Part shown: piece after piece, positions 16,983 through 32,264 of the stretch
Position numbering within the stretch: position 1 is the first letter of the stretch
Layout of the letters: every line of letters starts with the position of its first letter
Assembly: GCA_902363805.1 (NCBI GenBank)
Contig: CABJBF010000001.1
Span: forward strand, 186,001-250,000
Direction: 5' to 3'
From: Eubacteriaceae bacterium
GTDB lineage: Bacteria; Bacillota; Clostridia; Lachnospirales; Lachnospiraceae
DNA length: 64,000 nt
Position numbers and translations under genes: made by a program
The notes under the pieces: model-generated
What the model was told of the DNA's origin: nothing
The model's input: only the letters and a program-made list of their open reading frames with translations
Database searches by the model: none

Positions 16983-18578
16983 ATGGCAGAAGGAAAAGAT
17001 TTGTTGCAGGTTTTGTGGAGCGGAGCAGATGTATTAAGAGGTAAGATGGATGCAAATGAATACAAAACTTATTTATTAGGATTGGTATTTTATAAGTATT
17101 TATCAGATTCATATTTATCAAAAGTATATGATTTATTAAACGATGAAACACCAGATGATTTAGAAGAAGCGCAGGAAGTTTATGAGGATGTAATGAATAG
17201 TGAAGATGCCGAAGAACTATTGGCAGAATTGAAAGAATCATTACGTTATACATTGGACCCTGATATGACATATGTAAGCATATTGAAAGATGCTAAAAAC
17301 AATTCTTTCAACAGAGAAAAATTACAGTCAGCATTTAATAGAATTCAGGAATCAGACGAATTATTTAATGGATTATTTGCAGATGTTGATTTGTATTCAA
17401 ACAGGCTTGGAACCGGAGACCAAAAACAGAGTGCAACAATAGCAGAAGTGATAAAAGTGTTAGATGGTGCAGATTTAATACATACAGAAGGCGATGTGCT
17501 AGGAAATGCATATGAATACTTAATAGGACAGTTTGCTTCTGAAACAGGAAAAAAGGCAGGGGAATTCTATACTCCACATGGTCCGGCACAGATACTATGT
17601 CGAATTGCAATGACAGGACAGGAAGATAAAAAAGGATTACAGGTATATGACCCTTGTATGGGTTCAGGATCATTAATGCTGAGCTGCAAAAATTATGCAA
17701 AAGAACCGGATTATATAAAATACTATGGACAGGAACTTATGCCATCAACTTATAATTTGGCAAGAATGAATATGTTTTTGCATGGAGTTTTGCCGGAAAA
17801 TCAGCACTTAAGAAATGCTGATACATTAGATGCAGACTGGCCAACTGATGAAGAAACAGAATTTGATGTAGTTACAATGAATCCACCATATTCTGCAAAA
17901 TGGTCTGCAGCAGAAGGATTTAAACAAGATGAAAGATTTATGGATTATGGTGGAAAGCTTGCACCAAAATCAAAAGCAGATTATGCATTCTTATTACACG
18001 GATTTTATCATTTAAAACAGACAGGAACAATGGCGATTGTTTTACCACATGGAGTTTTATTTAGAGGAGCAGCAGAAGGAACAATAAGAGAAACACTTTT
18101 GAAAAATGGTTCTATATATGCGGTAATTGGCTTGCCATCAAATATGTTTTATAATACTTCAATTCCAACATGTATTGTAGTATTGAAAAAGCATCGTGAT
18201 GGACGAGATGTGTTGTTTATAGATGCATCAAATTTGTATGAAAAAGAGAAAAAGCAGAATGTTATGGAAGAAGAACATATTGATCGTGTTCTTGAATTAT
18301 ATAATAACAGAGAAAGTGTAGAGAAAGAAGCATACCTTGCATCTTATGAAGACATTGTGAAAAATGATTACAACTTGAATATACCACGATATGTAGATAC
18401 TTCAGAAGAAGAACCAGAGATTGATTTAAAAGCACTTACGCTGAGAATGAGAGAGACAGATAAAGAAATAAAAGAGGGTAATAATATGCTGTTAAGTATG
18501 TTAAAAGACCTAAATTTTGATAGCGATGAAACTAGAGAATCAGTAGAAGAATTCATAAAAGTCTTAGAGGAGGTGTAA
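16983..18578 (+). CDS. hsdM: Type I restriction-modification, methyltransferase subunit
   Basis: A 531-residue N6-adenine methyltransferase subunit that works with HsdS to methylate the target site. The N-terminal HsdM_N helical domain is residues about 5-150 (VLRGKMDANEYKTYLLGLVFYKYL). GEFYTPHGPAQIL is the usual Hsd linker. DPCMGSGSLML (about residue 222) is motif I for SAM. MNPPYSAKW (about 299) is catalytic motif IV, NPPY. The gene starts the hsdM-hsdS-hsdR operon; hsdS begins four bases after the stop. It is not truncated and has all key residues. Confidence 0.96.
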   Translation: MAEGKDLLQVLWSGADVLRGKMDANEYKTYLLGLVFYKYLSDSYLSKVYDLLNDETPDDLEEAQEVYEDVMNSEDAEELLAELKESLRYTLDPDMTYVSILKDAKNNSFNREKLQSAFNRIQESDELFNGLFADVDLYSNRLGTGDQKQSATIAEVIKVLDGADLIHTEGDVLGNAYEYLIGQFASETGKKAGEFYTPHGPAQILCRIAMTGQEDKKGLQVYDPCMGSGSLMLSCKNYAKEPDYIKYYGQELMPSTYNLARMNMFLHGVLPENQHLRNADTLDADWPTDEETEFDVVTMNPPYSAKWSAAEGFKQDERFMDYGGKLAPKSKADYAFLLHGFYHLKQTGTMAIVLPHGVLFRGAAEGTIRETLLKNGSIYAVIGLPSNMFYNTSIPTCIVVLKKHRDGRDVLFIDASNLYEKEKKQNVMEEEHIDRVLELYNNRESVEKEAYLASYEDIVKNDYNLNIPRYVDTSEEEPEIDLKALTLRMRETDKEIKEGNNMLLSMLKDLNFDSDETRESVEEFIKVLEEV

Positions 18579-18581
18579 AAT

Positions 18582-19790
18582 ATGGCAGATATACCAAAAA
18601 TAAGATTTAAAGGATTTACTGAACCTTGGGAACAGCGTAAGTTGGGAGAACTGGCTGAGATAGTTGGTGGAGGAACCCCAAGTACCAGTGTGAATTCATA
18701 TTGGGATGGAGATATTGATTGGTATGCTCCAGCAGAAATCGGTGAACAGATTTATTTGGAATCCAGCCAGCTTAAAATAACAGAGGAAGGTTTAAATAAG
18801 AGTTCTGCTAAGATTCTTCCCATAGGAACAGTTCTCTTTACATCACGTGCAGGTATTGGAAAAACCGCTATTTTACAGAAAGAAGGCTGTACAAATCAAG
18901 GCTTTCAGTCCATCGTTCCAAATAAAGAAAAATTAGATTCGTACTTTATTTTTACAAGGTCTGAAGAACTTAAGAGATATGGTGAAACAGTTGGTGCTGG
19001 ATCAACATTTGTTGAGGTATCTGGAAAGCAGATGGCGAATATGGAATTGATGATGCCAAAGACGATGCCAGAACAACAGCAAATTGGCGAATTTTTTGCA
19101 AACCTCGACCACCTTATCACCCTTCATCAACGTAAGTGTGATGACACAAAAGAATTAAAAAAATATATGCTTCAAAAAATGTTTCCGAAAAATGGAGAAA
19201 AATTTCCAGAAATCCGTTTTAAAGGATTCACTGAAGCTTGGGAACAGCGTAAGTTGGGGGAGGTCCTAAAAGAAAGAACAGAAAGAGCAAAAGGTGATGA
19301 AGAATTATTGTCGGTGACAATTGCAAACGGTGTTATTCGGCAAATAGATTCTGAGAAAAGAAATACTGCTTCTGAAGATAGAAGTAATTATAAAATTGTC
19401 AAAAAAGGTGATGTACCTTATAACTCAATGAGAATGTGGCAAGGAGCTGTTGGGAACTCTAAATATAACGGAATTGTAAGCCCAGCTTATACAATTCTTA
19501 CTCCAACACCTGAGGCAAATGGAAAATTTTTTATGGAATTATTCAAGAAAAAATCAACGTTGCAGATATTCCAAAGATGGTCGCAAGGTTTAACATCTGA
19601 TACGTGGAACTTGAAATATCCGATATTATCATCTATACAATTTGCTATTCCATCGGTAGAAGAGCAAGAAAAAATTGCAGAGTATTTTTCATCTCTCGAC
19701 CACCTCATCACCCTTCATCAACGTAAGTGTGATACACTAAAAGAGTTAAAAAAATATATGCTACAAAATATGTTTCCAAAGAAAGGATAA
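18582..19790 (+). CDS. hsdS: Type I restriction-modification, specificity subunit
   Basis: A 402-residue DNA-recognition subunit with two target recognition domains. TRD1 runs from about residue 15 and TRD2 from about 220. Each begins with the same framework (KGFTE-WEQRKLGE) and ends with LDHLITLHQRKCD followed by LKKYMLQ. The framework repeats are also nearly identical in DNA: 18625-18649 and 19237-19261 for the first, 19100-19128 and 19695-19719 for the second. Inverted copies of both occur in the silent cassette at 23784-24290, so TRD1 or TRD2 could be exchanged with the stored TRD. The recognised DNA sequence cannot be read from the protein. Confidence 0.95.
   Translation: MADIPKIRFKGFTEPWEQRKLGELAEIVGGGTPSTSVNSYWDGDIDWYAPAEIGEQIYLESSQLKITEEGLNKSSAKILPIGTVLFTSRAGIGKTAILQKEGCTNQGFQSIVPNKEKLDSYFIFTRSEELKRYGETVGAGSTFVEVSGKQMANMELMMPKTMPEQQQIGEFFANLDHLITLHQRKCDDTKELKKYMLQKMFPKNGEKFPEIRFKGFTEAWEQRKLGEVLKERTERAKGDEELLSVTIANGVIRQIDSEKRNTASEDRSNYKIVKKGDVPYNSMRMWQGAVGNSKYNGIVSPAYTILTPTPEANGKFFMELFKKKSTLQIFQRWSQGLTSDTWNLKYPILSSIQFAIPSVEEQEKIAEYFSSLDHLITLHQRKCDTLKELKKYMLQNMFPKKG
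18625..18649 (+). repeat. Recombination-type repeat in hsdS, perfect inverted copy at 24262
   Basis: A 25-bp block encoding WEQRKLGE. The exact reverse complement is at 24262-24286 in the silent cassette. A direct copy with one change is at 19237-19261 at the start of TRD2. Confidence 0.85.
19100..19128 (+). repeat. Recombination-type repeat at TRD1 end, inverted copy at 23798
   Basis: A 29-bp block encoding LDHLITLH. Its reverse complement with one mismatch lies at 23798-23826. A shorter direct copy is at 19695-19719. Confidence 0.8.
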
Positions 19791-19796
19791 GGGATT

Positions 19797-22748
19797 ATGG
19801 CAGAATTAGAAGCAATAATTGAGAGAAGACTAATAGACCAACTATGTAGTGGTGAATCACAATGGACGTATAGACCGGATATCAGAAATGAAGAGCAATT
19901 ATGGAAGAACTTTAAGTATATTTTAGAGCAGAACAATAAAGCAAAACTAAATGATACACCATTAAGTGAAAGTGAGTTTGCAAAGGTAAAGAATGATTTA
20001 TCACATGCTTCATTTTATGATGTAGGGAAATGGCTAGTTGGCGAAAATGGAAAAGTTTATGTCCATGTACAAAGAGGCAATGAAACATTACATTTAGTCG
20101 TTATGAATAATGAGCACATTGCAGGCGGGACAAGTGTATATGAAGTTATAAATCAATATCAGGCGTTCAAAACAGAAGAAAATGACGAAAGGGACAGAAG
20201 ATTTGACGTCACATTGCTTATTAATGGAATTCCTATGATTCATATTGAACTGAAAAATAAAGAACATTCATATATGGACGGATATAGGCAAATAAAGAAA
20301 TATATAGCAGAAGGTAAATTTAGAGGCCTCTTTTCAAATATTCAAATGTTTGTTGTAAGTAATGCGGTAGATACAAAATATTTTTCGGCAGCAAGAGATA
20401 CGGAATTAAATAAAAAATTTATTACAGGATGGATAGATGAAAAGAACTATCCTGTATGTGATTATATGGATTTTGCAAAGGCAGTATTAAAAATACCGGA
20501 AGCGCATGAAATGGTTACAAAATATACAGTTTTGGATAATGACAAAAAGAAATTGTTAATTCTGAGACCATATCAGATTCATGCAATTAAGGCAATGCGA
20601 AATGCATCAAAACAAGGAAAATCAGGATTTATTTGGCATACAACAGGTTCAGGAAAGACAATGACATCATATAAGGCTACAAGAAACCTGCTAATGGATA
20701 TACCATCTATAGAAAAAACAGTTTTTTTGATTGATAGAAAAGATTTAGATATGCAGACAAAGATGGCATTTCAGTCTTATGCAGATAACGATACAATTGA
20801 TGTAGATGATACAGATTATGTCGATACTTTAATTAAAAGAATGACTGATGGTAATAGGCAAATGATTGTTACAACAAGACAAAAAATGCAGACAATGATT
20901 AGCAATCGTTTGAAAGAAGGAACGAAAGAATTTCGGATTATAAAAAATTTAAGAGTTGCTTTTGTAGTAGATGAATGTCATAGAGCAGTAACTCCTGAAA
21001 CAAAAAGAAAATTGGAACAGTTCTTTAATAATTCTTTGTGGTATGGATTTACCGGAACACCTATTTTTGAGCAGAATAAATATGAACAAAAGGGAGACTT
21101 ACCACAAACTACAGAACAGCTGTATGGAAAGTGTTTGCATAGTTATACGATAAAGGAAGCTATCCATGATGAGGCAGTCTTAGGCTTTATGGTAGAAAAT
21201 CTTGGACCAAAGAATAAGGATGTAGATGAATCTGCCTATTTATCCGAAAAGCATATGAGAAATGTTTTAGACGTTATATTGAATCAATCTGCCACAAAAT
21301 TGGGAATGCAGAATGGTAAAGGAAGAACATATGAGGGAATATTAACAGTTAAATCCATTTCAATTGCACAAAAATATTATGAATTGTTAAAGAGAATAAA
21401 AAATGGACAAGATGAGTTAAAGATAAGTGAAGATATTCAGAAAGCGTTACCGGATTTTCCTAAGTTTGCAATTACATACTCAATTTCAGAAAATGAAGAA
21501 GCATCTACTGTTAATCAGGATAAGATGAAAGAATCTTTAGAAGATTACAATGAAATGTTTGGAACAAATTACAAGCTTGAAGCGATAAATGCCTACAATA
21601 GTAACTTAAATGACAGATTAGCAAGAAAGGAAAAGAAATATCTTGAAAGAAGTCAGCAACTTGATTTGGTAATTGTTGTTGATAGATTGTTGACGGGATT
21701 TGATGCACCTTGTTTATCTACATTGTTTATGGATAGACCACCAATGACTCCACAGAATATAATTCAGGCGTTTTCACGAACTAATCGATTGTTTGATAGT
21801 AATAAGCAGTATGGACAGATTGTAACATTCCAATCGCCTAAAGAGTTTAAAGATGCTATAAACAATGCATTGACATTATATTCTAGAGGTGGTGATGGAA
21901 GACCAGTAGCTGAGGATTGGGAAACTGTACTTGATAATTTCAACATATCTGTTAAGGCTATTCATGCTTTAGCAGAAACACCCGAAGAGATATCAGCATT
22001 GTCAAGACAACAAAAGAAATCGTTTGTTCATCTGTTTAGAGCATTAGACCATGATTTTGCACATCTTAAGGCGTTTTCAAATTACAATGAAGATATATTG
22101 AAAGAGTTAGAATTTTCACAGGAAGAATATGAAAACTATGCAGCAATGTATAACAATGTAATGGAGGAACTTAAGAAACCTTCAGATGACCCGGATGGAG
22201 ATGGACCTGAATTAGATGAATATGATTTAATGGCTTATAGTAAGTTGCGTATAGATTTTGAATATATTATTGAATTGCTTCAAGGAGTTGTTGAGTCTTT
22301 AGACCAGACAAAAGATGATTTTAAAGAATCTGATTTTGAATATAATATTAATGTATTAAGAGGTATTATCGATGATTATTATAAGGTTAATCCACAAATA
22401 AGTGAGCTACTAAAGATAATTATTGAAGATATCGAAAATGATAAGGAAAAGTATATAGGTCAGGACATATCCGTTATATTTAATCAGATGAAGTATAAAA
22501 TTATCGATGATGCTATAAGGGAATTTGCTCAAAAATGGTATTTAGAAGATGAGGATGTTAAGTTTGAAGCATATAATTATAGAGATGGAATGCTTGCAAA
22601 CGAAAACGTCCTAAAAGAAAAAACGGATTATAAAACTTATAAAGAAAAATCAGAAGAACCTATGCCAAAATACAAGTTTAGAAAAACTATGGTAGAAGAG
22701 TTTAAAAATGATTTAATGGAAGAAATAAGCCCATTGATTAATGAATAA
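19797..22748 (+). CDS. hsdR: Type I restriction-modification, restriction subunit
   Basis: A 983-residue translocase and nuclease subunit. The N-terminal nuclease domain has RRFDVTLLINGIPMIHIELKN, the PD-(D/E)xK arrangement (Asp, then ELK). The SF2 motor has HTTGSGKTMTSYK (Walker A, about residue 281-290), VVDECHRA (motif II, DECH, about 391), YGFTGTP (motif III) and QAFSRTNRLF (motif VI). The C-terminal helical region carries long acidic segments and contacts HsdM in relatives. It is full length. It lies between hsdS and the recombinase/silent cassette, so an inversion through the outer repeats would flip it. Confidence 0.95.
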   Translation: MAELEAIIERRLIDQLCSGESQWTYRPDIRNEEQLWKNFKYILEQNNKAKLNDTPLSESEFAKVKNDLSHASFYDVGKWLVGENGKVYVHVQRGNETLHLVVMNNEHIAGGTSVYEVINQYQAFKTEENDERDRRFDVTLLINGIPMIHIELKNKEHSYMDGYRQIKKYIAEGKFRGLFSNIQMFVVSNAVDTKYFSAARDTELNKKFITGWIDEKNYPVCDYMDFAKAVLKIPEAHEMVTKYTVLDNDKKKLLILRPYQIHAIKAMRNASKQGKSGFIWHTTGSGKTMTSYKATRNLLMDIPSIEKTVFLIDRKDLDMQTKMAFQSYADNDTIDVDDTDYVDTLIKRMTDGNRQMIVTTRQKMQTMISNRLKEGTKEFRIIKNLRVAFVVDECHRAVTPETKRKLEQFFNNSLWYGFTGTPIFEQNKYEQKGDLPQTTEQLYGKCLHSYTIKEAIHDEAVLGFMVENLGPKNKDVDESAYLSEKHMRNVLDVILNQSATKLGMQNGKGRTYEGILTVKSISIAQKYYELLKRIKNGQDELKISEDIQKALPDFPKFAITYSISENEEASTVNQDKMKESLEDYNEMFGTNYKLEAINAYNSNLNDRLARKEKKYLERSQQLDLVIVVDRLLTGFDAPCLSTLFMDRPPMTPQNIIQAFSRTNRLFDSNKQYGQIVTFQSPKEFKDAINNALTLYSRGGDGRPVAEDWETVLDNFNISVKAIHALAETPEEISALSRQQKKSFVHLFRALDHDFAHLKAFSNYNEDILKELEFSQEEYENYAAMYNNVMEELKKPSDDPDGDGPELDEYDLMAYSKLRIDFEYIIELLQGVVESLDQTKDDFKESDFEYNINVLRGIIDDYYKVNPQISELLKIIIEDIENDKEKYIGQDISVIFNQMKYKIIDDAIREFAQKWYLEDEDVKFEAYNYRDGMLANENVLKEKTDYKTYKEKSEEPMPKYKFRKTMVEEFKNDLMEEISPLINE

Positions 22749-22766
22749 TATAATTATCAAGAAAGT

Positions 22767-22800
22767 AAAAGCTTGGAATTTTTTGAGTTTCCAAGCTTTT
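22767..22800. terminator. Terminator after hsdR, usable on both strands
   Basis: A 12-bp perfect stem AAAAGCTTGGAA / TTCCAAGCTTTT with a 10-nt T-rich loop. T-rich sequence follows on the + strand. Confidence 0.85.
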
Positions 22801-22810
22801 ATTTATTAAA

Positions 22811-22822
22811 ATCGGCGTGCAT
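22811..22822 (+). repeat. 12-bp inverted repeat left of the recombinase gene
   Basis: ATCGGCGTGCAT; its perfect inverted partner is at 23789-23800. The two flank the recombinase exactly. GC-rich words of this kind stand out in this AT-rich DNA. Confidence 0.75.
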
Positions 22823-22829
22823 ATTTTAT

Positions 22830-23759
22830 TTAAGAAAGGTTAGATAATGACCTCATAATAATATCAATATCCTTACTTTCAAGTTCCTGTATAATATGGA
22901 GATATGTTTTTTGAGTTGTAGTCATACTAGCGTGTCCCAATCTCCTTGCAACACTGGCAATTGAAACTCCGGCAAATAGCAAAAGTGATGCATGCGTATG
23001 TCGTAATCCGTGAATTGAAATTACTGGAATACCGGTACTAATACAATGTCTTGCTAAAATATCATTTAGCGTAGAGTTGTATACTTTATCTTTAACGAAA
23101 ATTGGTTCGTTTTCAGGTAAATCTTTTATAAGTGAAGAAAACTGCATTACTGTCTGCCAATCAAGTTGGATTTTTCTCATAGAAGAAAGATTTTTTGTAG
23201 GAAGAAAACCACCGTTACCTTTGTAATTCCATGTCTTAGAAACAGTTAACATTTGATGAGACAAGTCAAAATCTTTAGGTGTTAATGCTAATGCTTCTGA
23301 AAATCTCATTCCTGTTTTAGCTACTAAAAGTATAAACCAATCCCAATTTATATTCTCTGATAAATCTAAAGACTCAATTAACTTATGTAGTTCAAATTGG
23401 TTAAGATACTTTTGCTTTTTTGCTCTAGGTTCTTTGCCTTTAATGATAGCTTTCCTTGTAGGGTCGCGGGAAATTAAACCCTCATCAACAGCATCTAATA
23501 TTGCACATTTAATATGATGATGAAAATCCATAGTTGTTTGTCGTTCATGGTTTTGTGCATAATCGTTTAGAAGTTGCTGATAAGATATTCTGTCAATATC
23601 CCCAACAGTAAGAGTCGGAATTAATTTTACTAACCATTGATGTGCCATCTTATATTTGTTCATTGTTATAGGTCTTATAGCACCTTCCTTGTAAACAGTA
23701 ATCCATTTTTTGTAGTAATCACAGAATAAAGTGTCACTACTGACTGTCGTTGTGTTCAT
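22830..23759 (-). CDS. Tyrosine recombinase (XerC/phage-integrase type), probable hsdS invertase
   Basis: A 309-residue site-specific recombinase. The N-terminal SAM-like DNA-binding domain covers about 1-105. Catalytic residues seen are Arg in TGMRFSEAL, His-x-x-Arg in HGLRHTHAS, His in LGHASMTTT and the nucleophile Tyr in QKTYLHI. Recombinases of this type beside hsdS genes shuffle TRD segments in Streptococcus and Bacteroidales (established). Here it lies between hsdR and a silent inverted hsdS cassette and is bracketed by 12-bp inverted repeats, which fits that job. The alternative is the integrase of a decayed element. Confidence 0.92.
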   Translation of the reverse strand: MNTTTVSSDTLFCDYYKKWITVYKEGAIRPITMNKYKMAHQWLVKLIPTLTVGDIDRISYQQLLNDYAQNHERQTTMDFHHHIKCAILDAVDEGLISRDPTRKAIIKGKEPRAKKQKYLNQFELHKLIESLDLSENINWDWFILLVAKTGMRFSEALALTPKDFDLSHQMLTVSKTWNYKGNGGFLPTKNLSSMRKIQLDWQTVMQFSSLIKDLPENEPIFVKDKVYNSTLNDILARHCISTGIPVISIHGLRHTHASLLLFAGVSIASVARRLGHASMTTTQKTYLHIIQELESKDIDIIMRSLSNLS

Positions 23760-23788
23760 TTGTAAGTCCTCCTTTTCATTAGTCTATA

Positions 23789-23826
23789 ATGCACGCCGAT
23801 GAAGGGTGATAAGGTTGTCGAGGTTT
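23789..23826 (-). repeat. Composite repeat: 12-bp recombinase-flanking repeat joined to TRD-end repeat
   Basis: 23789-23800 is the perfect inverted partner of 22811-22822. It overlaps 23798-23826, the inverted copy of the TRD1-end repeat at 19100. The point where cassette and hsdS stop matching lies inside this composite site. Confidence 0.75.
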
Positions 23827-24261
23827 TGAAAAAACGCTCCAATTTTTACCTGTTCGTTTATTTTAGGAACAGGTAATTCCTGCTTATATAATTCTTCCCA
23901 AACTATATTTTTTCTGCAAATACTTGCACCTTCAGTCGATGCCTTTAAGAAGAAATCTTTTGTCTTGTCTTGTTTAACCCATGCTTGCATAAATAATGGA
24001 TCACAGTTTATCAATTCATAAACCTTGTAAGCAGGCGATATTATGCCATGTTCGAAGCGTAAATTGACATTACAATTTCCTAAATGTAAATTCTGTGCTG
24101 ATAAAATTAAATCATTCTTTTTTACTTTCAAATAGCCAATATTAGATGAACCTCTAAAGTGACTAAATAACTCCGAGTTAAGAAACATTCCATCAATGGC
24201 ACAAGAAAGTAATGTATCTTCATCTTCTACACTGGTCTTTTCTCTGGTCTCATTCAATAAA

Positions 24262-24286
24262 TCTCCCAACTTACGCTGTTCCCAAG
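24262..24286 (-). repeat. Inverted copy of hsdS framework repeat
   Basis: Exact reverse complement of 18625-18649, encoding WEQRKLGD at the start of the silent TRD. Confidence 0.85.
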
Positions 24287-24382
24287 TATTACATATAAAA
24301 AATAGAATATAATGATGTAATTTAATAAAAATCAAAATGTGAAAGAAGCTATTTTATAGTTCGATAAAGTAAAAAATAACGG

Positions 24383-24470
24383 AATCGAGTCCTGAAAAAG
24401 GGACAGTGAATATGAGAAAATGGAAGCATAAAAGGAAAAAGAAAAAAATTGCAGCTATAAAGGAGGCAAA
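24383..24470 (+). repeat. Island-bounding direct repeat, copy B
   Basis: The second copy of the block at 16376-16458, including GTCC-TGAAAAAG-GGAC (a small hairpin) and CAGCTATAAAGGAGG. Here it is the leader of the EF-hand gene. The copies differ by a few substitutions and an insertion of about 6 nt. Confidence 0.8.
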
Positions 24471-24472
24471 TT

Positions 24473-24718
24473 ATGGGATTTTGGAACGGAAAAGTAGATG
24501 GACCTTTAGACAAAATGTTTGACTTTGACAGAGATGGCAAATTAAATGCTTGGGAAAGAGCAATGGAACTAGGGTTATTAATGGATGATGAAGATGACTA
24601 CCAGGATGAGGATGATGATAGTGACTTTGATGATGACGAGTTTGACGACGATGATGAAAGGGAAGAGCTGATGGAAGAAGATTGGGATTCGGATTACGAT
24701 GAAAGTGATGAGTGGTAA
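24473..24718 (+). CDS. Small acidic EF-hand-loop protein
   Basis: An 81-residue protein. Residues 1-35 (MGFWNGKVDGPLDKMFDF and on) end in DFDRDGKLNAWE, a textbook 12-residue EF-hand calcium loop (D-x-D-x-D-G-x-L-x3-E). The rest is almost entirely Asp/Glu. No signal peptide or membrane segment. A longer paralogue with the same N-terminus (DFNKDGKLNTFE) is at 31407, on the other side of the CRISPR-Cas locus. Function unknown; calcium binding is inferred from the loop. Confidence 0.8.
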   Translation: MGFWNGKVDGPLDKMFDFDRDGKLNAWERAMELGLLMDDEDDYQDEDDDSDFDDDEFDDDDEREELMEEDWDSDYDESDEW

Positions 24719-24737
24719 AAACGATTATAAAATTAAA

Positions 24738-24766
24738 TTGACATAACGTTATATATATAATAAGAT
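24738..24766 (+). promoter_or_regulatory. Sigma-A promoter of the crRNA-like gene
   Basis: TTGACA (24738-24743), a 17-bp spacer, then TAAGAT (24761-24766, 4 of 6 to consensus). Transcription would begin near 24773, at the start of the crRNA-type repeat. Confidence 0.7.
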
Positions 24767-24772
24767 TGAGTT

Positions 24773-24847
24773 AACAATTTCTACTTCAGTAGATTAAGAT
24801 AATTTGGTCTGATGCATTATATAACGCTAAATAGGCGTTATATTTTT
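24773..24847 (+). ncRNA. creR: Putative crRNA-like regulatory RNA (CreR type) upstream of cas12a
   Basis: AATTTCTACTTCAGTAGAT (24776-24794) is a Cas12a-type direct-repeat handle: stem TCTAC/GTAGA, loop TTCA. The array repeats have the same stem with a different loop. The handle is followed by a guide-like segment from 24795 (TAAGATAATTTGGTC) and an intrinsic terminator with a 9-bp perfect stem (24819-24827 with 24835-24843) and a T run. The first 9 guide nucleotides match minus-strand positions 24879-24871, directly after TTTA (24883-24880), a Cas12a PAM. That site lies just before the cas12a ribosome site. Known: CreR RNAs in other CRISPR types guide Cas effectors to repress their own promoter through partial pairing. 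Inferred: this one does so here. Confidence 0.8.
24819..24847 (+). terminator. Terminator of the crRNA-like gene
   Basis: ATATAACGC pairs perfectly with GCGTTATAT around a 7-nt loop, followed by TTTT. It gives an RNA of roughly 75 nt. Confidence 0.8.
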
Positions 24848-24870
24848 AAAAAATAATTAAAAAAATTGAC

Positions 24871-24883
24871 ATTATCTTATAAA
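24871..24883 (-). promoter_or_regulatory. Seed target of the crRNA-like guide in the cas12a upstream region
   Basis: Read on the minus strand: PAM TTTA (24883-24880), then TAAGATAAT (24879-24871), identical to guide positions 1-9. Position 10 mismatches and later matching is sporadic, so cleavage is not expected. The site overlaps a -10-like TATCTT (24873-24878) and ends next to the ribosome site AGGAGG (24886-24891). Confidence 0.75.
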
Positions 24884-24898
24884 AGAGGAGGAGCGAAA

Positions 24899-27800
24899 AT
24901 GAACAAAAATAAAACAATATTTAGCGAAACAATAGGACAAACGTATGTATCAAAAACATTAAAAAATACAATAATTCCAATTGGAGCAACACAATTAAAT
25001 ATCGAAAGAAATGGATTAATTACAGAAGATAAAATAAGAAGTGAAAAGCGACAAGAGTTGAAGAAAATAATGGATGATTATTACAGATACTTTATTAATA
25101 ATACATTATCAGGAAATTTAGCCAAAACTATAGAATGGGGAGAATTATTTCGTGCAATAGATAATAATTATATTAATAATTCAGATAAAACAAAAAATGA
25201 ATTAAAAAACATTCAAAAGAAAAAAAGAACGGAATTAAATAAACTCTTTAAATCTAATGATGATTATAAAAAGATGTTTAATGCAAAATTATTATCTGAT
25301 ATTTTACCTGAATTTATAAATAAACAAAAAATAAGTAATACCGAAAAAGAAGAAAGATTAAACACAGTAAACTTATTTAATAAATTTACTTCATCCTTTA
25401 CAGATTTTTTCATAAATCGAGAGAACATTTTTGCAGATGATAAGTCTACTTCAATTTGCTACAGAATTGTAAATGAAAATGCATGGATTTTTTATCAAAA
25501 TTATCTAATTTATAACAAGATAAAAGAAGATGCGGAAAAAGAAATTATAACAATAGAAAATAATAATGTAGATGGCTTAGATGGATTTACATTAAATAGT
25601 ATTTTTAATTTTGATTTCTATGGTATGTTAATGAATCAAAAAGGAATAAGATTCTACAATGATATATGTGGAATTGTGAATGCACATATGAATTTATATT
25701 GCCAAAAATATAAAAAAAAGGCTGCAAAATATAGACTCAAAAGAATGCATAAACAGATATTGAGTATTGATGAGTCAACATTCGAAGTACCTAAAATGTT
25801 AGAAAGTGATAAAGAAGTTTATGACTTGGTCAATGGTTTTTTATACAAATTAAACGAAAAAAAGGTTTTAGATAGAATAAGGAAAATCAGTGAAGATGTA
25901 ACAAGCTATGATTTAAATAAAATATATGTATGTGAAAAAAATTATGAAAATTTATCTTTGTTTATGTGTAGAAATTGGAGCGTACTTAGAGATTCTATAA
26001 AAGCATTTTATCAGGAGAATACAACAGGAAGTAATGCAGGAAAAGAAAAAAAGATAGAGAAATTAATGAAAGAAGATAAATATAGAAGTTTACAGAATAT
26101 AAATGAATTAATTAATAAATATAACAGTAATTCTATAGAAAGAAAGGCAGAAGAATATATTGTTAATATAAATGAAAAATTAGAAAATAAAGAACTTGTT
26201 CAATTAACAAATAAAGAAGATATAAGTTTGATAGAAGATGAAGAAAGCGGAGAAGAATTAAAGCGTGTTTTAGATTTAATAATGAGTATAAACCATTGGA
26301 TAAAAATGTTTATTATTGATGAAGAAGTAGATAAAGATATGGCGTTTTATACTGAAATAGAAGATATATATTATGAGTTAGAACCGCTTAAATCTATATA
26401 TGACAAAGTACGAAATTATATAACTCAAAAGCCTTATAGCAAAGAAAAAATAAAACTCAATTTTGGAATCCCTACATTAGCAAAGGGATGGTCAAAAACT
26501 AAGGAGTATGATAATAATGCTATTATTTTAATTCGTGAAAATAAGTATTATATAGGAATATTCAATGCAAAAAATAAGCCAGACAAAACAGTTATTGAAG
26601 GACACAAGAAAAAAAACGACAGCGATTATAAAAAAATGGTGTATATGTTTTTAACGAAACCACGTTTAATGCTTCCAAAGGTATTTCTTTCTAAAAAGGG
26701 AATTGCGACGTATAAAACTTCTGAATATATACTAGATGGATATAGAAAGGGAAAGCATAATAAATCTAGTAAGAATTTTGATGTAAATTATTGTAGAGAT
26801 TTAATTGATTATTTTAAGGATTGTATTAATAAAAGAGATGAATGGAAAGGATATAAATTTAAGTTTTCAGAAACATCCACATACGAAGATATAAATGATT
26901 TTTATAAAGAGATTGAAAAGCAGGCATATACAATTCAGTGGACCTATATAGATGAAAAAGATATAGATGAGATGAATGAAAAGGGACAATTATATTTATT
27001 CCAAATATATAATAAGGATTTTTCAGAGAAAAGCACTGGAACTAAAAATCTTCATACTATGTATTTTGAAAATTTGTTTAGCGAAGAAAACTTAAAAAAT
27101 ATTGTACTTAAATTGGATGGAAATGCCGAAGTATTTTTCAGAAAATCAAGCATTAAGCAACCTATTATTCATAAAAAAGGAAGTATTTTAGTAAATAAAG
27201 GTTACAATGAACAAAAAGAAAATGAAGAAAGAAAGACTATACCTGATGAAGTATACACAGAACTTTATAAGTATTTCAATAAAATTGGAAAAGTAAAATT
27301 ATCAAATGAAGCAAAGAAATTAATAGATGAAGATAAAGTTGAATACTTTACATCTGATTACGATATTGTAAAAGATTATCGATATACTGTAGATAAATAT
27401 TTTCTCCATTTACCTATAAAGATAAATTGTAATGCAGAAAATTATTCACCTGTAAATGATATTGCATTGAAGAATATTGCTGAAAATAATGATATGCATA
27501 TTATTGGTATAGACAGAGGAGAAAGAAATCTTATTTATGTTTCAGTAATTGATTTACATGGAAATATTATAGAGCAGAAGAATTTCAACATAATTAATGG
27601 AGTGAACTATAAGGAAAAATTAAAACAAAGAGAAAGTGAACGTGACAGTGCCAGAAAGAATTGGAAACAAATTGGAAAAATCAAAGATATAAAAGAAGGA
27701 TATTTGTCTTTGGTTATTCATGAAATAACAAGCTTAGTATTAAAATATAATGCGATAATTGCTATGGAAGATTTAAATATGGGATTTAAGAGGGGGAGAT

Positions 27801-28681
27801 TTAAAGTTGAACGTCAAGTATACCAGAAATTTGAAAATATGTTGATAAGTAAATTAAATTATTTAGTTGATAAAAATAAAGCAGTAAACGAAGAAGGAGG
27901 AGTATTAAAAGGATATCAAATGACATATATCCCTAAAAGTTTGAAAGAATTAGGAAGACAATGTGGATATATTTTTTATGTTCCGGCAGCATATACCTCA
28001 AAAATTGATCCAACTACAGGTTTTGTATCCGTTTTCAATTATAAAGAAATGGATGATGAAAAATTTGTGACAAGTTTTGATTCAATCAAATATGATAAGA
28101 ACAGACAAAAGTTTGCTTTAAAATTTGATTATACAAATTTCATAACGCACAATGTTAAATTAGCAAAAAATGAATGGACAATTTATTCTAATGGAACAAG
28201 AAAAATAAGAAAGTATAGGAATGACAAATGGAATTCACCGGACAATGTTAATTTAACGAATGAAATAATTAAATTAATGGAGCAGTATAACATTCAATAT
28301 GATAATGAACAAGATATATTAGAACAGGTGGAGACATTAGAAACTAAAAATAAAAATAATTTCTGCAAAGAAATGAAAAAATTAGTTAAGTATATTGTGC
28401 AAATGAGAAATAGTTTACCTGATAATGATTCAATTGAATATGATGAAATTATTTCACCGGTATTAAATGAGTCAGGAGAATTTTATAATTCAGAAGAAAA
28501 AAATAAAAAATTACCTCTGGATGCAGATGCAAATGGAGCATATTGTATAGCACTTAAAGGATTGTATGAAGTAAAACAAATCAAAAATAATTGGAAGAAA
28601 GGCGAAAAGTTTCCTAGGAAAACACTAAAAATATCTCATAATGATTGGTTTGATTTTATACAAAATAAAAGGTATTTATAA
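24899..28681 (+). CDS. cas12a: Cas12a (Cpf1), type V-A CRISPR effector nuclease
   Basis: A 1,260-residue RNA-guided nuclease that processes its own pre-crRNA and cuts DNA beside a T-rich PAM. The ATG at 24899 follows AGGAGGAG by 5 nt; the TTG at 24866 would run through the ribosome site. Motifs: KTLKNTIIPIG at the N-terminus, GWSKTKEYDNNAIILIRENKYY in the WED region, LPKVFLSKKG in the PAM-interacting part and LHTMYFENLFSEENL. RuvC-I has Asp872 in GIDRGERN, RuvC-II has Glu957 in AMEDLN, and RuvC-III has Asp1210 in DADANGAY. The Nuc-lobe arginine is Arg1170 in QMRNS. All catalytic residues are present and the length is normal. It is closest by eye to the Eubacterium rectale/eligens group (MAD7-like). 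The gene overlaps cas4 as TAATG. Confidence 0.98.
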   Translation: MNKNKTIFSETIGQTYVSKTLKNTIIPIGATQLNIERNGLITEDKIRSEKRQELKKIMDDYYRYFINNTLSGNLAKTIEWGELFRAIDNNYINNSDKTKNELKNIQKKKRTELNKLFKSNDDYKKMFNAKLLSDILPEFINKQKISNTEKEERLNTVNLFNKFTSSFTDFFINRENIFADDKSTSICYRIVNENAWIFYQNYLIYNKIKEDAEKEIITIENNNVDGLDGFTLNSIFNFDFYGMLMNQKGIRFYNDICGIVNAHMNLYCQKYKKKAAKYRLKRMHKQILSIDESTFEVPKMLESDKEVYDLVNGFLYKLNEKKVLDRIRKISEDVTSYDLNKIYVCEKNYENLSLFMCRNWSVLRDSIKAFYQENTTGSNAGKEKKIEKLMKEDKYRSLQNINELINKYNSNSIERKAEEYIVNINEKLENKELVQLTNKEDISLIEDEESGEELKRVLDLIMSINHWIKMFIIDEEVDKDMAFYTEIEDIYYELEPLKSIYDKVRNYITQKPYSKEKIKLNFGIPTLAKGWSKTKEYDNNAIILIRENKYYIGIFNAKNKPDKTVIEGHKKKNDSDYKKMVYMFLTKPRLMLPKVFLSKKGIATYKTSEYILDGYRKGKHNKSSKNFDVNYCRDLIDYFKDCINKRDEWKGYKFKFSETSTYEDINDFYKEIEKQAYTIQWTYIDEKDIDEMNEKGQLYLFQIYNKDFSEKSTGTKNLHTMYFENLFSEENLKNIVLKLDGNAEVFFRKSSIKQPIIHKKGSILVNKGYNEQKENEERKTIPDEVYTELYKYFNKIGKVKLSNEAKKLIDEDKVEYFTSDYDIVKDYRYTVDKYFLHLPIKINCNAENYSPVNDIALKNIAENNDMHIIGIDRGERNLIYVSVIDLHGNIIEQKNFNIINGVNYKEKLKQRESERDSARKNWKQIGKIKDIKEGYLSLVIHEITSLVLKYNAIIAMEDLNMGFKRGRFKVERQVYQKFENMLISKLNYLVDKNKAVNEEGGVLKGYQMTYIPKSLKELGRQCGYIFYVPAAYTSKIDPTTGFVSVFNYKEMDDEKFVTSFDSIKYDKNRQKFALKFDYTNFITHNVKLAKNEWTIYSNGTRKIRKYRNDKWNSPDNVNLTNEIIKLMEQYNIQYDNEQDILEQVETLETKNKNNFCKEMKKLVKYIVQMRNSLPDNDSIEYDEIISPVLNESGEFYNSEEKNKKLPLDADANGAYCIALKGLYEVKQIKNNWKKGEKFPRKTLKISHNDWFDFIQNKRYL

Positions 28682-29247
28682 TGGATGATATTATTAAAAT
28701 TTCAAATATAAATGATTTTATATTTTGCCCAGTTTCCATTTATTTTCATAATTTATATGGAAATCAGGAAAAGCTGATGTTTCAATCGAAATATCAGCTT
28801 AATGGGACAAAATCACATGAAACTATAGATAAAAATAAGTATTCAACAAGTTCTGATAAGATTACTTCGTTAGAAGTATATTCTGAAAAGTTTAGAATAA
28901 TTGGTAAAATTGATATTTATGATAAGAAAAAGGAGCTTTTAGTAGAAAGAAAAAAACATATAAAAGAAATCTATGATGGATATGTATTTCAATTATATGC
29001 TCAATATTATTGTATGACAGAAATGGGATATAATGTTTCAAAACTTCAAATTAGAAGTTGCGATGATAATAAAATATATAAAATCAAATTACCTGATGAA
29101 GATAAATCAATGAAAGAAAAATTTGAAAATACAATTAATGATATGAGAAATTTTGATATAGAACAATATCATCAAGTTAATGGATTAAAATGCCGAAATT
29201 GTATATATGAGGATGCATGTGATAGAGCTATGAATCGAGGGGAATAA
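28681..29247 (+). CDS. cas4: Cas4 nuclease of the adaptation module
   Basis: A 188-residue RecB-like exonuclease that trims prespacers and selects the PAM end. The first cysteine is in DFIFCPVSIYFH; the other three form CRNCIYEDAC at the C-terminus, together the [4Fe-4S] cluster ligands. The nuclease centre shows KIDIYDKKKELLVERKKH (Asp, then ExK-like) and YVFQLYAQYY (QxxxY). Its start overlaps the cas12a stop and cas1 starts two bases after its stop, so translation is coupled. Confidence 0.93.
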   Translation: MDDIIKISNINDFIFCPVSIYFHNLYGNQEKLMFQSKYQLNGTKSHETIDKNKYSTSSDKITSLEVYSEKFRIIGKIDIYDKKKELLVERKKHIKEIYDGYVFQLYAQYYCMTEMGYNVSKLQIRSCDDNKIYKIKLPDEDKSMKEKFENTINDMRNFDIEQYHQVNGLKCRNCIYEDACDRAMNRGE

Positions 29248-29248
29248 T

Positions 29249-30211
29249 ATGTTAAGTGCAAATGATTTTAGCAAAAAACAAATAATATTCTTGTTTACTA
29301 ATACAGGTGAAAAATTATCATTTTCAAATGATAACATTGTAATAAAGGACAAAGAGGGAAAAATAAAACACCAGTCTACATGCTATAGATTATTTATGGT
29401 ATGTGTGGTTGGAAATATATCAATAACTAGTGGATTGATTCAACGCAGCAAAAAATTTGGATTTGCAATTTGTTTGATGTCAACTACGTTTAGAGTATAT
29501 GAAATAATAGGAAGCAGAATGGAAGGAAACACAATGCTTAGAAAACGTCAATATGAATACACTCAAAATGACATAGGCAGAAAGATAGAACAAAATAAGA
29601 TAGCAAATCAAATGGATACTTTGAAAAATATAAGAAAAAAGACTGAGGAAATAAAAGAAGGAATAGAATTTCTTCAAGATATGATTGACAAATTAAATGA
29701 ACCTTTAAATTATTTGGAAGTAATGGGAATAGAAGGAAATGCTGCAAGAGTTTACTTTACGAGGGTGTTTAACAATGTTAAGTGGAATGGAAGAAAACCT
29801 AGAATAAAAAATGACTATATTAATGTTACATTGGATATAGGATACACAATGTTGTTTAATATTGTAGATGCAATATTACAAATATATGGGTTTGATACTT
29901 ATTATGGAGTATTTCATAAATGTTTTTATATGAGAAAATCTTTAGTATGTGATTTGATGGAACCTATGCGTCCAATTGTGGATTATTCAGTTAGAAAGGC
30001 AATTAATTTAGAACAATGTAAAAAAGAAGATTTTGAAGTGTATGATAACAGATGGGTATTAAAGTATAAAATGAATTCGAAATATATACAGTTTCTCATG
30101 AAAGATATTCTGGAATATAAAGATGAAATTTTTGTTTATATACAAAAATATTATAGATTTTTTATGAAAATGAAAAGTGTTGAGGAATTGCCGAGGTTTA
30201 AAGTACATTAG
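29249..30211 (+). CDS. cas1: Cas1 integrase
   Basis: A 320-residue spacer integrase. Metal-binding residues: Glu162 in MGIEGNAAR, His223 in GVFHKCFYM and Asp235 in CDLMEPMRP. The N-terminal beta domain and the helical catalytic domain are intact. It forms the Cas1-Cas2 complex with the next gene and inserts spacers at the leader end of the array, which begins 422 bp after its stop. Confidence 0.95.
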   Translation: MLSANDFSKKQIIFLFTNTGEKLSFSNDNIVIKDKEGKIKHQSTCYRLFMVCVVGNISITSGLIQRSKKFGFAICLMSTTFRVYEIIGSRMEGNTMLRKRQYEYTQNDIGRKIEQNKIANQMDTLKNIRKKTEEIKEGIEFLQDMIDKLNEPLNYLEVMGIEGNAARVYFTRVFNNVKWNGRKPRIKNDYINVTLDIGYTMLFNIVDAILQIYGFDTYYGVFHKCFYMRKSLVCDLMEPMRPIVDYSVRKAINLEQCKKEDFEVYDNRWVLKYKMNSKYIQFLMKDILEYKDEIFVYIQKYYRFFMKMKSVEELPRFKVH

Positions 30212-30231: not shown

Positions 30232-30507
30232 ATGATAGTGGTGAGTTACGATATATCAGATGATAAACTGAGAACTAAATTTTCAAAATATTTATCCAAA
30301 TTTGGTCATAGATTACAATATTCAGTATTTGAAATTGACAATAGCAAACGTATAGTTGATAATATAGTTACTGATATAAAAAATCGTTTTGAAAAATGTT
30401 TTACACAACAGGATAGTGTTATTATATTCAAACTGTCTTCAAGTTGTGAAGTACTTAGATTTGGTTATGCAAAAAATGATGAGAAAGATTTCTTTATAAT
30501 AACATAA
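30232..30507 (+). CDS. cas2: Cas2
   Basis: A 91-residue ferredoxin-fold protein. MIVVSYDISDDKLRTKFSKYL carries the typical first strand and Asp, followed by FGHRLQYSVFEI. It is the structural partner of Cas1. AGGGGAG-like ribosome site precedes the ATG. It is the last cas gene, and the array leader follows. Confidence 0.94.
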   Translation: MIVVSYDISDDKLRTKFSKYLSKFGHRLQYSVFEIDNSKRIVDNIVTDIKNRFEKCFTQQDSVIIFKLSSSCEVLRFGYAKNDEKDFFIIT

Positions 30508-30632: not shown

Positions 30633-31173
30633 GTTTGAATAACTTATAATTTCTACTGATGTGTAGATGGAAACCGATGACACAAATCCGTGGGAGTTTG
30701 AATAACTTATAATTTCTACTGATGTGTAGATTTTTATGGTTAATTGACGGTTTGCAGAGTTTGAATAACTTATAATTTCTACTGATGTGTAGATTATCGA
30801 GAAAATGGATTCTTATAAAATGTTTGAATAACTTATAATTTCTACTGATGTGTAGATTTCCTCTGCTATTTCTCTCTTAACGTGTTTGAATAACTTATAA
30901 TTTCTACTGATGTGTAGATTTGTGCTGATGAGATGTTTAGATTGAAGTTTGAATAACTTATAATTTCTACTGATGTGTAGATATGTTATATTCATCGTTA
31001 ATCATATGTGTTTGAATAACTTATAATTTCTACTGATGTGTAGATTATATTGGTTTGACCTTGTATAGATTTGTTTGAATAACTTATAATTTCTACTGAT
31101 GTGTAGATTACCCTTATATACGACAATAATGGTAGTTTGAATAACTTATAATTTCTACTAAAATATGGTAGAT
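30633..31173 (+). CRISPR. Type V-A CRISPR array, 9 repeats and 8 spacers
   Basis: The 36-bp repeat starts GTTTGAATAACTTATAATTT and ends CTACTGATGTGTAGAT. Repeats start at 30633, 30696, 30759, 30822, 30884, 30947, 31010, 31073 and 31135. Spacers are 26-27 nt, shorter than is common for arrays of other types. The first eight repeats are identical. The ninth (31135-31173) keeps the first 25 bases but has a changed, longer loop before GTAGAT. Array and cas genes share a strand; the leader side is at cas2. The handle in each crRNA is the TCTAC/GTAGA hairpin. Spacer sources cannot be named without a search. Confidence 0.98.
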
Positions 31174-31263: not shown

Positions 31264-31406
31264 AAATTGCAATTAAATCTTTAAATATTCCCCTACAAGT
31301 CCCATCTATTGGACACCAAATATGAGATAATTACCTCAATAAAAGAAAAACATTCTTTTACCACACAATTTGTAAAATATTTATAACACATGATTGGAGG
31401 TTAATT

Positions 31407-32264
31407 ATGGGAATTTGGAATGGAAAGGCAGATGGACCGTTAGACAAGTTTTTTGATTTTAATAAAGATGGTAAATTAAATACATTTGAAAGAGGCATGG
31501 AATATCGCTTTATGAACGAAACAAGAAATCAGAATAGCCAGAGAAAACAGTATGGAGATTATGAAGATAGTAGTTCCAGATATCATAACAATGAGGAAAA
31601 CAATGGCAGGACCTACAGCAAGAATAATGATAAGAGTAATAGCAACAACAATAAAGCTGACAACAATAATGACAAGAGTAATAGCAACAACAATAAAGTT
31701 GACAACAATGACGATAACTATGGCAAACAAAATGGTGGAGGTGATTCAACCATGAAAAACAACAAATCAACTTCAGTTATAAAATTTATCATAGCAATAG
31801 TAGCCATATTTGGATTAATATACGGCTTTAAATCAATTTACACTAACATAAAAACATGCGCAGAGCCAGGTTGTAATTTTAAAAAAGAAAAAGGATTTGA
31901 TTATTGCTATCGTCATATGAAAGAGCATGGGCTTGATTATGATTTTTCTGATTTGGAAAATGATACAACAGAAAATGATGAAACCTACGAAGAAGAGACA
32001 ACCCGTTATGACATCATAAATAATACTCAGAAACCAACTAGCAACAGCGACACATATGAAAGAGAGACAACAAGAAAAACTTATAATTATTCAAATAGCT
32101 CTAAAAAACATTATTATTATGATGACTCATACGACGATGGATATGATGATATAATATCAGATGACGACTATGATTATGACCGCTATGATGAAGATGATGA
32201 TTATGCAGATGGTGTTGACGATGCAATAGATGAAATGATGGAAGATGGAGAAGGCGATTGGTAG
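31407..32264 (+). CDS. EF-hand-loop membrane protein with acidic low-complexity tail
   Basis: A 285-residue protein. Residues 1-35 match the protein at 24473, including the calcium loop DFNKDGKLNTFE. A long Asn/Ser/Lys/Asp low-complexity stretch follows, then one membrane segment near residues 123-142 (VIKFIIAIVAIFGLIYGF). After that come a short cysteine/histidine region (CAEPGCNFKKEKGFDYCYRHMKEHG) and a very acidic Asp/Tyr tail. The Cys/His part resembles a small zinc knuckle. The ribosome site is GGAGG. Function unknown. With its paralogue it brackets the CRISPR-Cas locus. Confidence 0.8.
   Translation: MGIWNGKADGPLDKFFDFNKDGKLNTFERGMEYRFMNETRNQNSQRKQYGDYEDSSSRYHNNEENNGRTYSKNNDKSNSNNNKADNNNDKSNSNNNKVDNNDDNYGKQNGGGDSTMKNNKSTSVIKFIIAIVAIFGLIYGFKSIYTNIKTCAEPGCNFKKEKGFDYCYRHMKEHGLDYDFSDLENDTTENDETYEEETTRYDIINNTQKPTSNSDTYERETTRKTYNYSNSSKKHYYYDDSYDDGYDDIISDDDYDYDRYDEDDDYADGVDDAIDEMMEDGEGDW

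What the first reader, a model, noticed from the sequence alone, without database searches (positions are those of the whole stretch)
24738..24883. Self-targeting crRNA-like gene (CreR type) that would make Cas12a repress its own gene
Seen: promoter TTGACA-17-TAAGAT, a single Cas12a-type handle (stem TCTAC/GTAGA, loop TTCA), a guide-like segment and a 9-bp-stem terminator, all in 110 bp. Guide positions 1-9 (TAAGATAAT) equal the minus strand at 24879-24871, directly after a TTTA PAM, next to the cas12a ribosome site. A 9-nt seed match beside a correct PAM in so short a region is unlikely by chance, and the mismatches after position 9 would prevent cleavage but allow binding. Known: CreR RNAs guiding Cas effectors to their own promoters have been described for several CRISPR types including type V-A. 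Inferred: this locus has such a loop, so Cas12a would rise when crRNAs are scarce or an anti-CRISPR is present. The handle is separate from the array and differs in its loop, so it is not a stray repeat.
Basis: partly seen in the sequence, partly recalled or inferred. Interest (0 to 1): 0.95.

Follow-up and report, generated by a model that had tools for sequence, protein, structure and literature searches.

The report
Self-silencing guide RNA for Cas12a
Just in front of a bacterial cas12a gene sits a short sequence with the layout of a one-guide RNA gene whose guide matches the DNA beside that gene's start, and two other bacteria have the same layout with different but self-matching letters, so Cas12a is predicted to use this RNA to turn itself down without cutting its own DNA.

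Summary
A lone Cas12a handle (24776-24794) outside the array is followed by a guide whose first nine letters equal the minus strand at 24879-24871, beside a TTTA PAM, 15 nt before the cas12a ATG. It is the only one of 3925 TTTV sites in the window with more than six matching letters; 8 or 18 of 20000 shuffles do as well.

The decisive result comes from relatives. Of 48 other distinct cas12a loci, two carry a lone exact-stem handle within 400 nt upstream (L043, L048). In both the guide matches its own cas12a upstream DNA, by 15 and 9 nt, from guide position 1, beside TTTA, on the same strand. The three guides differ and none matches the others' regions by more than 3 nt: seed and target change together. 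In L043 the PAM abuts the -35 of a near-consensus cas12a promoter.

Transcription, Cas12a loading and repression are untested. Open point: no clear cas12a promoter lies between hairpin and target in this window. New member of a known kind.

The parts
24738..24766 (+). promoter-like site of the RNA gene, TTGACA-17-TAAGAT (10 of 12)
   Evidence: consensus match only; predicted start near 24773, about 3 nt before the handle
24776..24794 (+). lone Cas12a handle AATTTCTACTTCAGTAGAT, loop TTCA (array repeats: loop TGATGT)
   Evidence: stem formed in the minimum-energy fold, not in its centroid
24795..24818 (+). 24-nt guide segment; positions 1-9 (24795-24803) match the target
24819..24847 (+). terminator-like hairpin, 10 pairs, loop of 5, TTTT tail (possibly leaky)
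   Evidence: 75-nt RNA: z = -3.05, 0 of 200 shuffles as stable; not called by the strict scan
24846..24875 (+). weak candidate cas12a promoter TTAAAA-18-CATTAT (8 of 12), its -10 overlapping the target; speculative
24871..24883 (-). self-target: PAM TTTA (24883-24880) and nine matched letters (24879-24871)
24899..28681 (+). cas12a (1260 aa)
   Evidence: TIGR04330, 1260.5 bits
28681..30507 (+). cas4 (28681-29247), cas1 (29249-30211), cas2 (30232-30507)
   Evidence: TIGR04328, TIGR04329, TIGR01573; coordinates
30633..31173 (+). CRISPR array, 36-nt repeat, eight spacers, last repeat degenerate

Best explanation
This is a single-guide, crRNA-like gene (a predicted type V-A creR) that likely directs Cas12a to the DNA just upstream of Cas12a's own start codon and would thereby repress it without cutting. 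Shown from sequence: handle, guide, hairpin, self-match beside a TTTA PAM, and the same arrangement with changed but still self-matching seeds in two relatives. Inferred: the RNA is made from its own promoter, ends at the hairpin, and is loaded by Cas12a through the handle. Inferred: with nine paired letters (15 in L043) the complex binds but does not cut, and blocks transcription initiation by covering the promoter or start region. Inferred consequence: when array crRNAs load most Cas12a, or an anti-CRISPR removes it, repression lifts and cas12a (with cas4-cas1-cas2 if co-transcribed) rises.
For: Match and its rarity. Two relatives with the same order and own matches of 15 and 9 nt, against 3 nt or less across loci. 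Searched without any PAM demand, the longest guide match in each of the three upstream regions begins at guide position 1, lies on the minus strand and is preceded by TTTA. 15 nt lie between PAM and ATG in the window, 16 in L048. In L043 the PAM abuts TTGACA of TTGACA-17-TATTAT, 11 of 12, upstream of cas12a. In genome G578 the pattern TTTCTACN{3,8}GTAGAT occurs 19 times: 18 in the array (TGTT loop) and this lone one (TATG loop). A backwards control pattern is absent from the 528716 bases of the 49 loci. Literature: 15-nt spacers let AsCas12a bind but not cut (PMC11919711, passages); DNA with PAM and seed held Cas12a longest among the backgrounds tested (PMC13129545, passages); at a promoter dead Cas12a repressed about equally on either strand in E. 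coli (PMC5460296, abstract and passages); CreRs with partial complementarity to cas promoters are reported for type V-A (reviews PMC12737573 and PMC13131331, passages).
Against: No expression or repression data. No convincing cas12a promoter between hairpin and target in the window or L048 (best 8 of 12). The guide would pair with the coding strand in all three loci; dead Cas12a blocks elongation poorly in that orientation (PMC5460296), and in mycobacteria a three-spacer coding-strand set that included a promoter site repressed weakly or not at all (PMC8363830, passages). Nine pairs is a weak R-loop, and 15-nt spacers gave weak or no CRISPRi in two human cell lines. The handle stem is in the minimum-energy fold but the ensemble centroid replaces it by a pairing with the guide, and the handle-guide part alone is no more stable than shuffles (z = -0.29). 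Only 2 of 48 relatives have the element. The handle pattern read backwards still occurs 4 times in four genomes, so single handles can arise by chance. Promoter and terminator of the RNA gene are modest consensus matches.
Confidence: 0.85

Rival explanations
1. Antisense small RNA: the guide segment, complementary to the cas12a leader beside the ribosome site, would pair with the mRNA and block translation; Cas12a is not needed.
For: In the window and L048 the matched letters lie close before the ATG on the coding strand, and in all three loci the guide is antisense to the gene.
Against: In L043 the match lies upstream of the -35 of the best cas12a promoter, outside that mRNA. Each match begins at guide position 1, right after a handle, and is preceded by TTTA, which antisense pairing would not need.
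Confidence: 0.05
2. Handle as decoy, attenuator or processing site: the lone handle in the 5' part of the transcript would be bound or cut by Cas12a, regulating cas12a through its own RNA; the seed match is incidental.
For: No clear separate cas12a promoter in the window, so cas12a may be read through from the RNA gene. L015 has a handle-like TCTACTGTTGTAGG directly before its ribosome site without a self-match.
Against: Does not predict self-matching guides in 3 of 3 lone-handle loci; L043 has its own strong promoter behind the hairpin.
Confidence: 0.05
3. Chance: a stray repeat next to AT-rich DNA that happens to match.
For: The region is 22% GC and the seed is AT-rich; with a relaxed PAM P = 0.0028.
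Against: Three loci, with 18, 0 and 19 of 20000 shuffles reaching the observed match; identical PAM, strand and register.
Confidence: 0.02
4. RNA anti-CRISPR (Racr) or a leftover solitary repeat of a mobile element that occupies Cas12a.
For: Solitary repeats in viral genomes, often behind a promoter, are Racr candidates, and three V-A candidates inhibited a Moraxella bovoculi V-A system (PMC10651486, passages).
Against: The unit lies directly in front of cas12a in a full cas12a-cas4-cas1-cas2-array locus and carries a self-matching guide, a layout shared by two more cas12a loci.
Confidence: 0.02

Closest known systems
CreR, cas-regulating RNAs (types I-B, I-E, V-A; source paper Liu et al. 2023, Cell Host Microbe, recalled and not held; seen through passages of reviews PMC12737573 and PMC13131331)
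   Same: crRNA-like RNA gene beside the cas operon, partial match next to a PAM upstream of the effector gene, no toxin partner
   Different: Here a single repeat with its own hairpin end, with seed-target covariation seen across three loci; in the window the target lies 15 nt before the ATG, not on a recognisable promoter. Whether the source paper lists such loci was not seen.
CreTA / CrePA (CRISPR-repressed toxin modules; review PMC12737573, passages)
   Same: crRNA-like guide with partial match used for repression
   Different: the matched site is upstream of cas12a itself; no other TTTV site in the 64 kb window has more than 6 matching letters
Racr (phage RNA anti-CRISPRs; PMC10651486, passages)
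   Same: solitary repeat unit behind a promoter
   Different: lies in the cas locus and has a self-matching guide
Autorepression of SpyCas9 (mentioned in PMC13131331; the guide mechanism is recalled)
   Same: effector represses its own gene; anti-CRISPRs relieve it
   Different: different effector; here a separate small RNA gene

Membership tests
CreR (type V-A) | repeat-derived handle with guide, outside the array, beside cas genes | tested here: met
   L043 and L048
CreR (type V-A) | limited complementarity, PAM-adjacent, upstream of the effector gene | tested here: met
   9, 15 and 9 nt from guide position 1 beside TTTA
CreR (type V-A) | target lies on the cas promoter | tested here: inconclusive
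   clear in L043 (11 of 12); window best plausible 8 of 12, L048 none convincing
CreR (type V-A) | guide and target change together | tested here: met
   three loci, cross-matches 3 nt or less; n is small
CreR (type V-A) | RNA is made, binds Cas12a and represses cas12a | not testable with these tools
   needs RNA sequencing and reporter assays
CreTA / CrePA | guide targets the promoter of a neighbouring toxin gene | tested here: not met
   the only TTTV site with more than 6 matching letters in the window is upstream of cas12a
Racr | solitary repeat in a virus or plasmid, not associated with cas genes | tested here: not met
   directly upstream of cas12a-cas4-cas1-cas2
CRISPR array repeat (stray unit) | same repeat as the array, flanked by repeats | tested here: not met
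   different loop, single unit; the 5' half of the repeat is not recognisable upstream of it (its best local score is reached by 4685 of 10770 AT-rich 20-mers)

The most novel reading that the evidence does not exclude
The Cas12a clade of this window (which also holds the Lachnospira enzymes) carries a portable promoter-guide-hairpin-target cassette as its standard built-in autorepressor: the guide is held by selection to matches too short to cut, guide and target are rewritten together as loci diverge, and the cassette is a one-gene sensor of crRNA supply and anti-CRISPRs. Both clade members whose upstream DNA could be read here (2 of 12 on the tree) have it.
Probability: 0.4. Interest if true: 0.7.

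Novelty: new member of a known kind. Interest (0 to 1): 0.52.

Why it matters
It gives evolutionary evidence, not only a seed match, that cas12a genes carry their own guide-RNA brake, and it offers natural examples of guides that stop short of cutting length. Because guide, PAM, hairpin and target lie within about 150 bp, the whole loop can be moved to a laboratory strain and tested letter by letter, including whether anti-CRISPRs or crRNA supply switch cas12a on.

Tried and rejected
Rfam on 24300-25000 at E up to 1: 11 snoRNA-like hits, all below gathering scores, in the acidic ORF. Whether the 5' half of the array repeat survives upstream of the lone handle: not above chance. The exact creR start in viral contigs: none; similar DNA of 24719-25500 in plasmids: none. 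Cas12a in viral contigs: five scans with protein or profile queries gave one distant locus, L031; in phages with P0070: none; in plasmids: one distant Butyrivibrio gene without an upstream handle. Lone handles elsewhere in genomes G783 and G743 have no self-match and look coding by eye: treated as chance. L024 has a two-repeat mini-array behind cas12a, best match 5 nt. Handles with up to two stem mismatches and a match of 7 nt or more: none on the coding strand in 400 nt upstream of the 49 loci. Handle-like hairpins with one mismatch in L004, L015 and L045 have no self-match above 5 nt. The one genome-contig scan gave only distant relatives (29-42%); DNA behind the closer proteins P0001-P0012 was not within reach of the tools.

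Full report
Where it lies. The window holds a complete type V-A locus: cas12a 24899-28681, cas4, cas1, cas2 and an eight-spacer array. In the protein search (314 hits, best 120 listed) its Cas12a has one 98% relative; the next are at 64, 61, 57 and 57%. The 180 bp between an upstream 81-codon ORF and the cas12a ATG contain the finding.

The observation. The lone handle keeps the stem of the array repeat but has a four-letter loop (TTCA) instead of six (TGATGT). The guide's first nine letters match the minus strand next to TTTA; 15 nt lie between the PAM and the ATG.

Chance. Of 3925 TTTV sites in 64 kb, one has more than six matching letters, and it is this one. Shuffled flanks reach nine in 8 of 20000, shuffled guides in 3 of 20000, and flanks cut slightly differently in 18 of 20000. 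The eight real spacers reach at most seven letters in the window outside the array.

Relatives. I collected cas12a loci from the one genome-contig scan (24 loci), from five viral scans with protein or profile queries that gave one locus, from a plasmid record, and from whole-genome searches: 2 of 391 genomes of a Clostridia sample; 9 of 397 of the family of G093, 7 over the cut-off; 1 of 2; 2 of 26; 7 of 392 of the order of G435; 0 of 37; 2 of 175; 1 of 1; 22 of 170 of the family of G006, 20 over the cut-off. These samples overlap. G093 was chosen because its release factor 3 is 80% identical to that of the window, the best of 391. After removing 14 duplicates or second pieces and three fragments without a usable start (L019, L085, L086), 48 distinct relatives remained; three of them have less than 400 nt upstream (L053 166, L070 80, L083 297).

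Result. Scanning the coding strand of 400 nt upstream of each, exact-stem lone handles occur in L043, L048 and the window only; L084 has an array there. All three lone guides match their own upstream DNA beside TTTA, by 15, 9 and 9 nt; the five L084 array handles give 0-3 nt. The automatic start for L043 and L048 was off by 21 and 15 nt; the starts used elsewhere are 1474 and 1495. Each guide reaches at most 3 nt on the other two regions. Without any PAM requirement the best match in each region still begins at guide position 1, sits on the minus strand and follows TTTA. Shuffle counts are 18, 0 and 19 of 20000 for window, L043 and L048. Hairpins behind the guides of L043 and L048 were read by eye; the folding program there paired the L043 guide with its own target instead.

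Two geometries. In the window and L048, 15 and 16 nt separate PAM and ATG; in L043 87 nt do, and the PAM sits directly against TTGACA of an 11-of-12 promoter. In all three the guide would pair with the coding strand. In E. coli dead Cas12a blocks elongation mainly when pairing with the template strand, but repressed a promoter about equally on both strands (PMC5460296, abstract and passages); in mycobacteria a coding-strand set including a promoter site worked weakly or not at all (PMC8363830, passages). I favour a block of initiation. For L043 this fits well; for the window it needs a start site inside or next to the target, for which only a weak candidate (TTAAAA-18-CATTAT) exists. This is the main open point.

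Why it would bind and not cut. Residues D872, E957 and D1210, which I take from recall to be the RuvC triad, are invariant in the 15-sequence alignment, so the enzyme should be active. AsCas12a with 15-nt spacers binds without cutting, although CRISPRi with such spacers was weak or absent in two human cell lines (PMC11919711, passages). DNA with PAM plus seed slowed Cas12a most among the designed backgrounds tested in vitro (PMC13129545, passages). The three natural matches stop at 9, 9 and 15.

Folding. In the 75-nt RNA the handle stem is present in the minimum-energy structure, but the centroid replaces it by a pairing of the handle's end with the guide, and the 45-nt handle-guide part is no more stable than shuffles. 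This counts against a robust handle unless Cas12a selects the right fold.

Distribution. On a FastTree tree of 59 Cas12a proteins (one short fragment, L017, left out; L080 and L081 partial) the window and L048 fall in one clade of 12 (support 0.997) in which only these two have upstream DNA at hand; L043 lies in another clade, next to L042 and L053, in which no lone handle was found (L053 with only 166 nt upstream). The element is patchy outside the window's clade and untested for ten members inside it.

Placement in the literature. Reviews describe CreR RNAs in type V-A that guide Cas12a to the promoter of its own operon, sensing crRNA supply and anti-CRISPRs (PMC12737573 and PMC13131331, passages). 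The source paper (Liu et al. 2023) was not returned by the searches; the beginning of its title was matched in three papers, the rest and its content are recalled. In the rows listed I saw no primary paper on V-A CreR. I file this as a new member of that kind; expression and repression remain to be shown.

Noticed in passing
window 24462-24568 and 31396-31502: The starts of an acidic 81-codon ORF and a 285-codon ORF are 80% alike over 107 nt and flank the cas12a-CRISPR island on both sides, suggesting the island sits between paralogues; both begin with a DFDRDGKLN/DFNKDGKLN segment that recalls an EF-hand loop (motif name recalled).
   Followed up: partly
window 16983-24335: ORFs that read like a type I restriction-modification locus (methylase-, specificity- and helicase-like), then a recombinase-like ORF and a partial specificity-like ORF on the minus strand: looks like an invertible specificity module (from the translations; names recalled, no family search run on them).
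   Followed up: no
L037 1351, 1486, 1804 (minus); L038 1010 (minus); L039 3698: Viral contigs with solitary Cas12a handles (TTCA or TTCC loop) and no array in the stretch held; those of L038 and L039 lie behind what reads like a tRNA end. Possible V-A Racr candidates.
   Followed up: partly
L015, directly before the ribosome site of cas12a (ATG 5953): A handle-like hairpin TCTACTGTTGTAGG lies between a TATAAT-like box and the ribosome site of a Treponema cas12a, without a self-match: possible processing or binding site in the mRNA leader.
   Followed up: partly
L084, within 400 nt upstream of its cas12a-like gene: At least five array handles lie directly upstream of a distant Cas12a relative (513.8 bits), unlike the other loci.
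   Followed up: no
L024 5659: A two-repeat mini-array directly behind cas12a, one spacer, best match in the locus 5 nt.
   Followed up: partly
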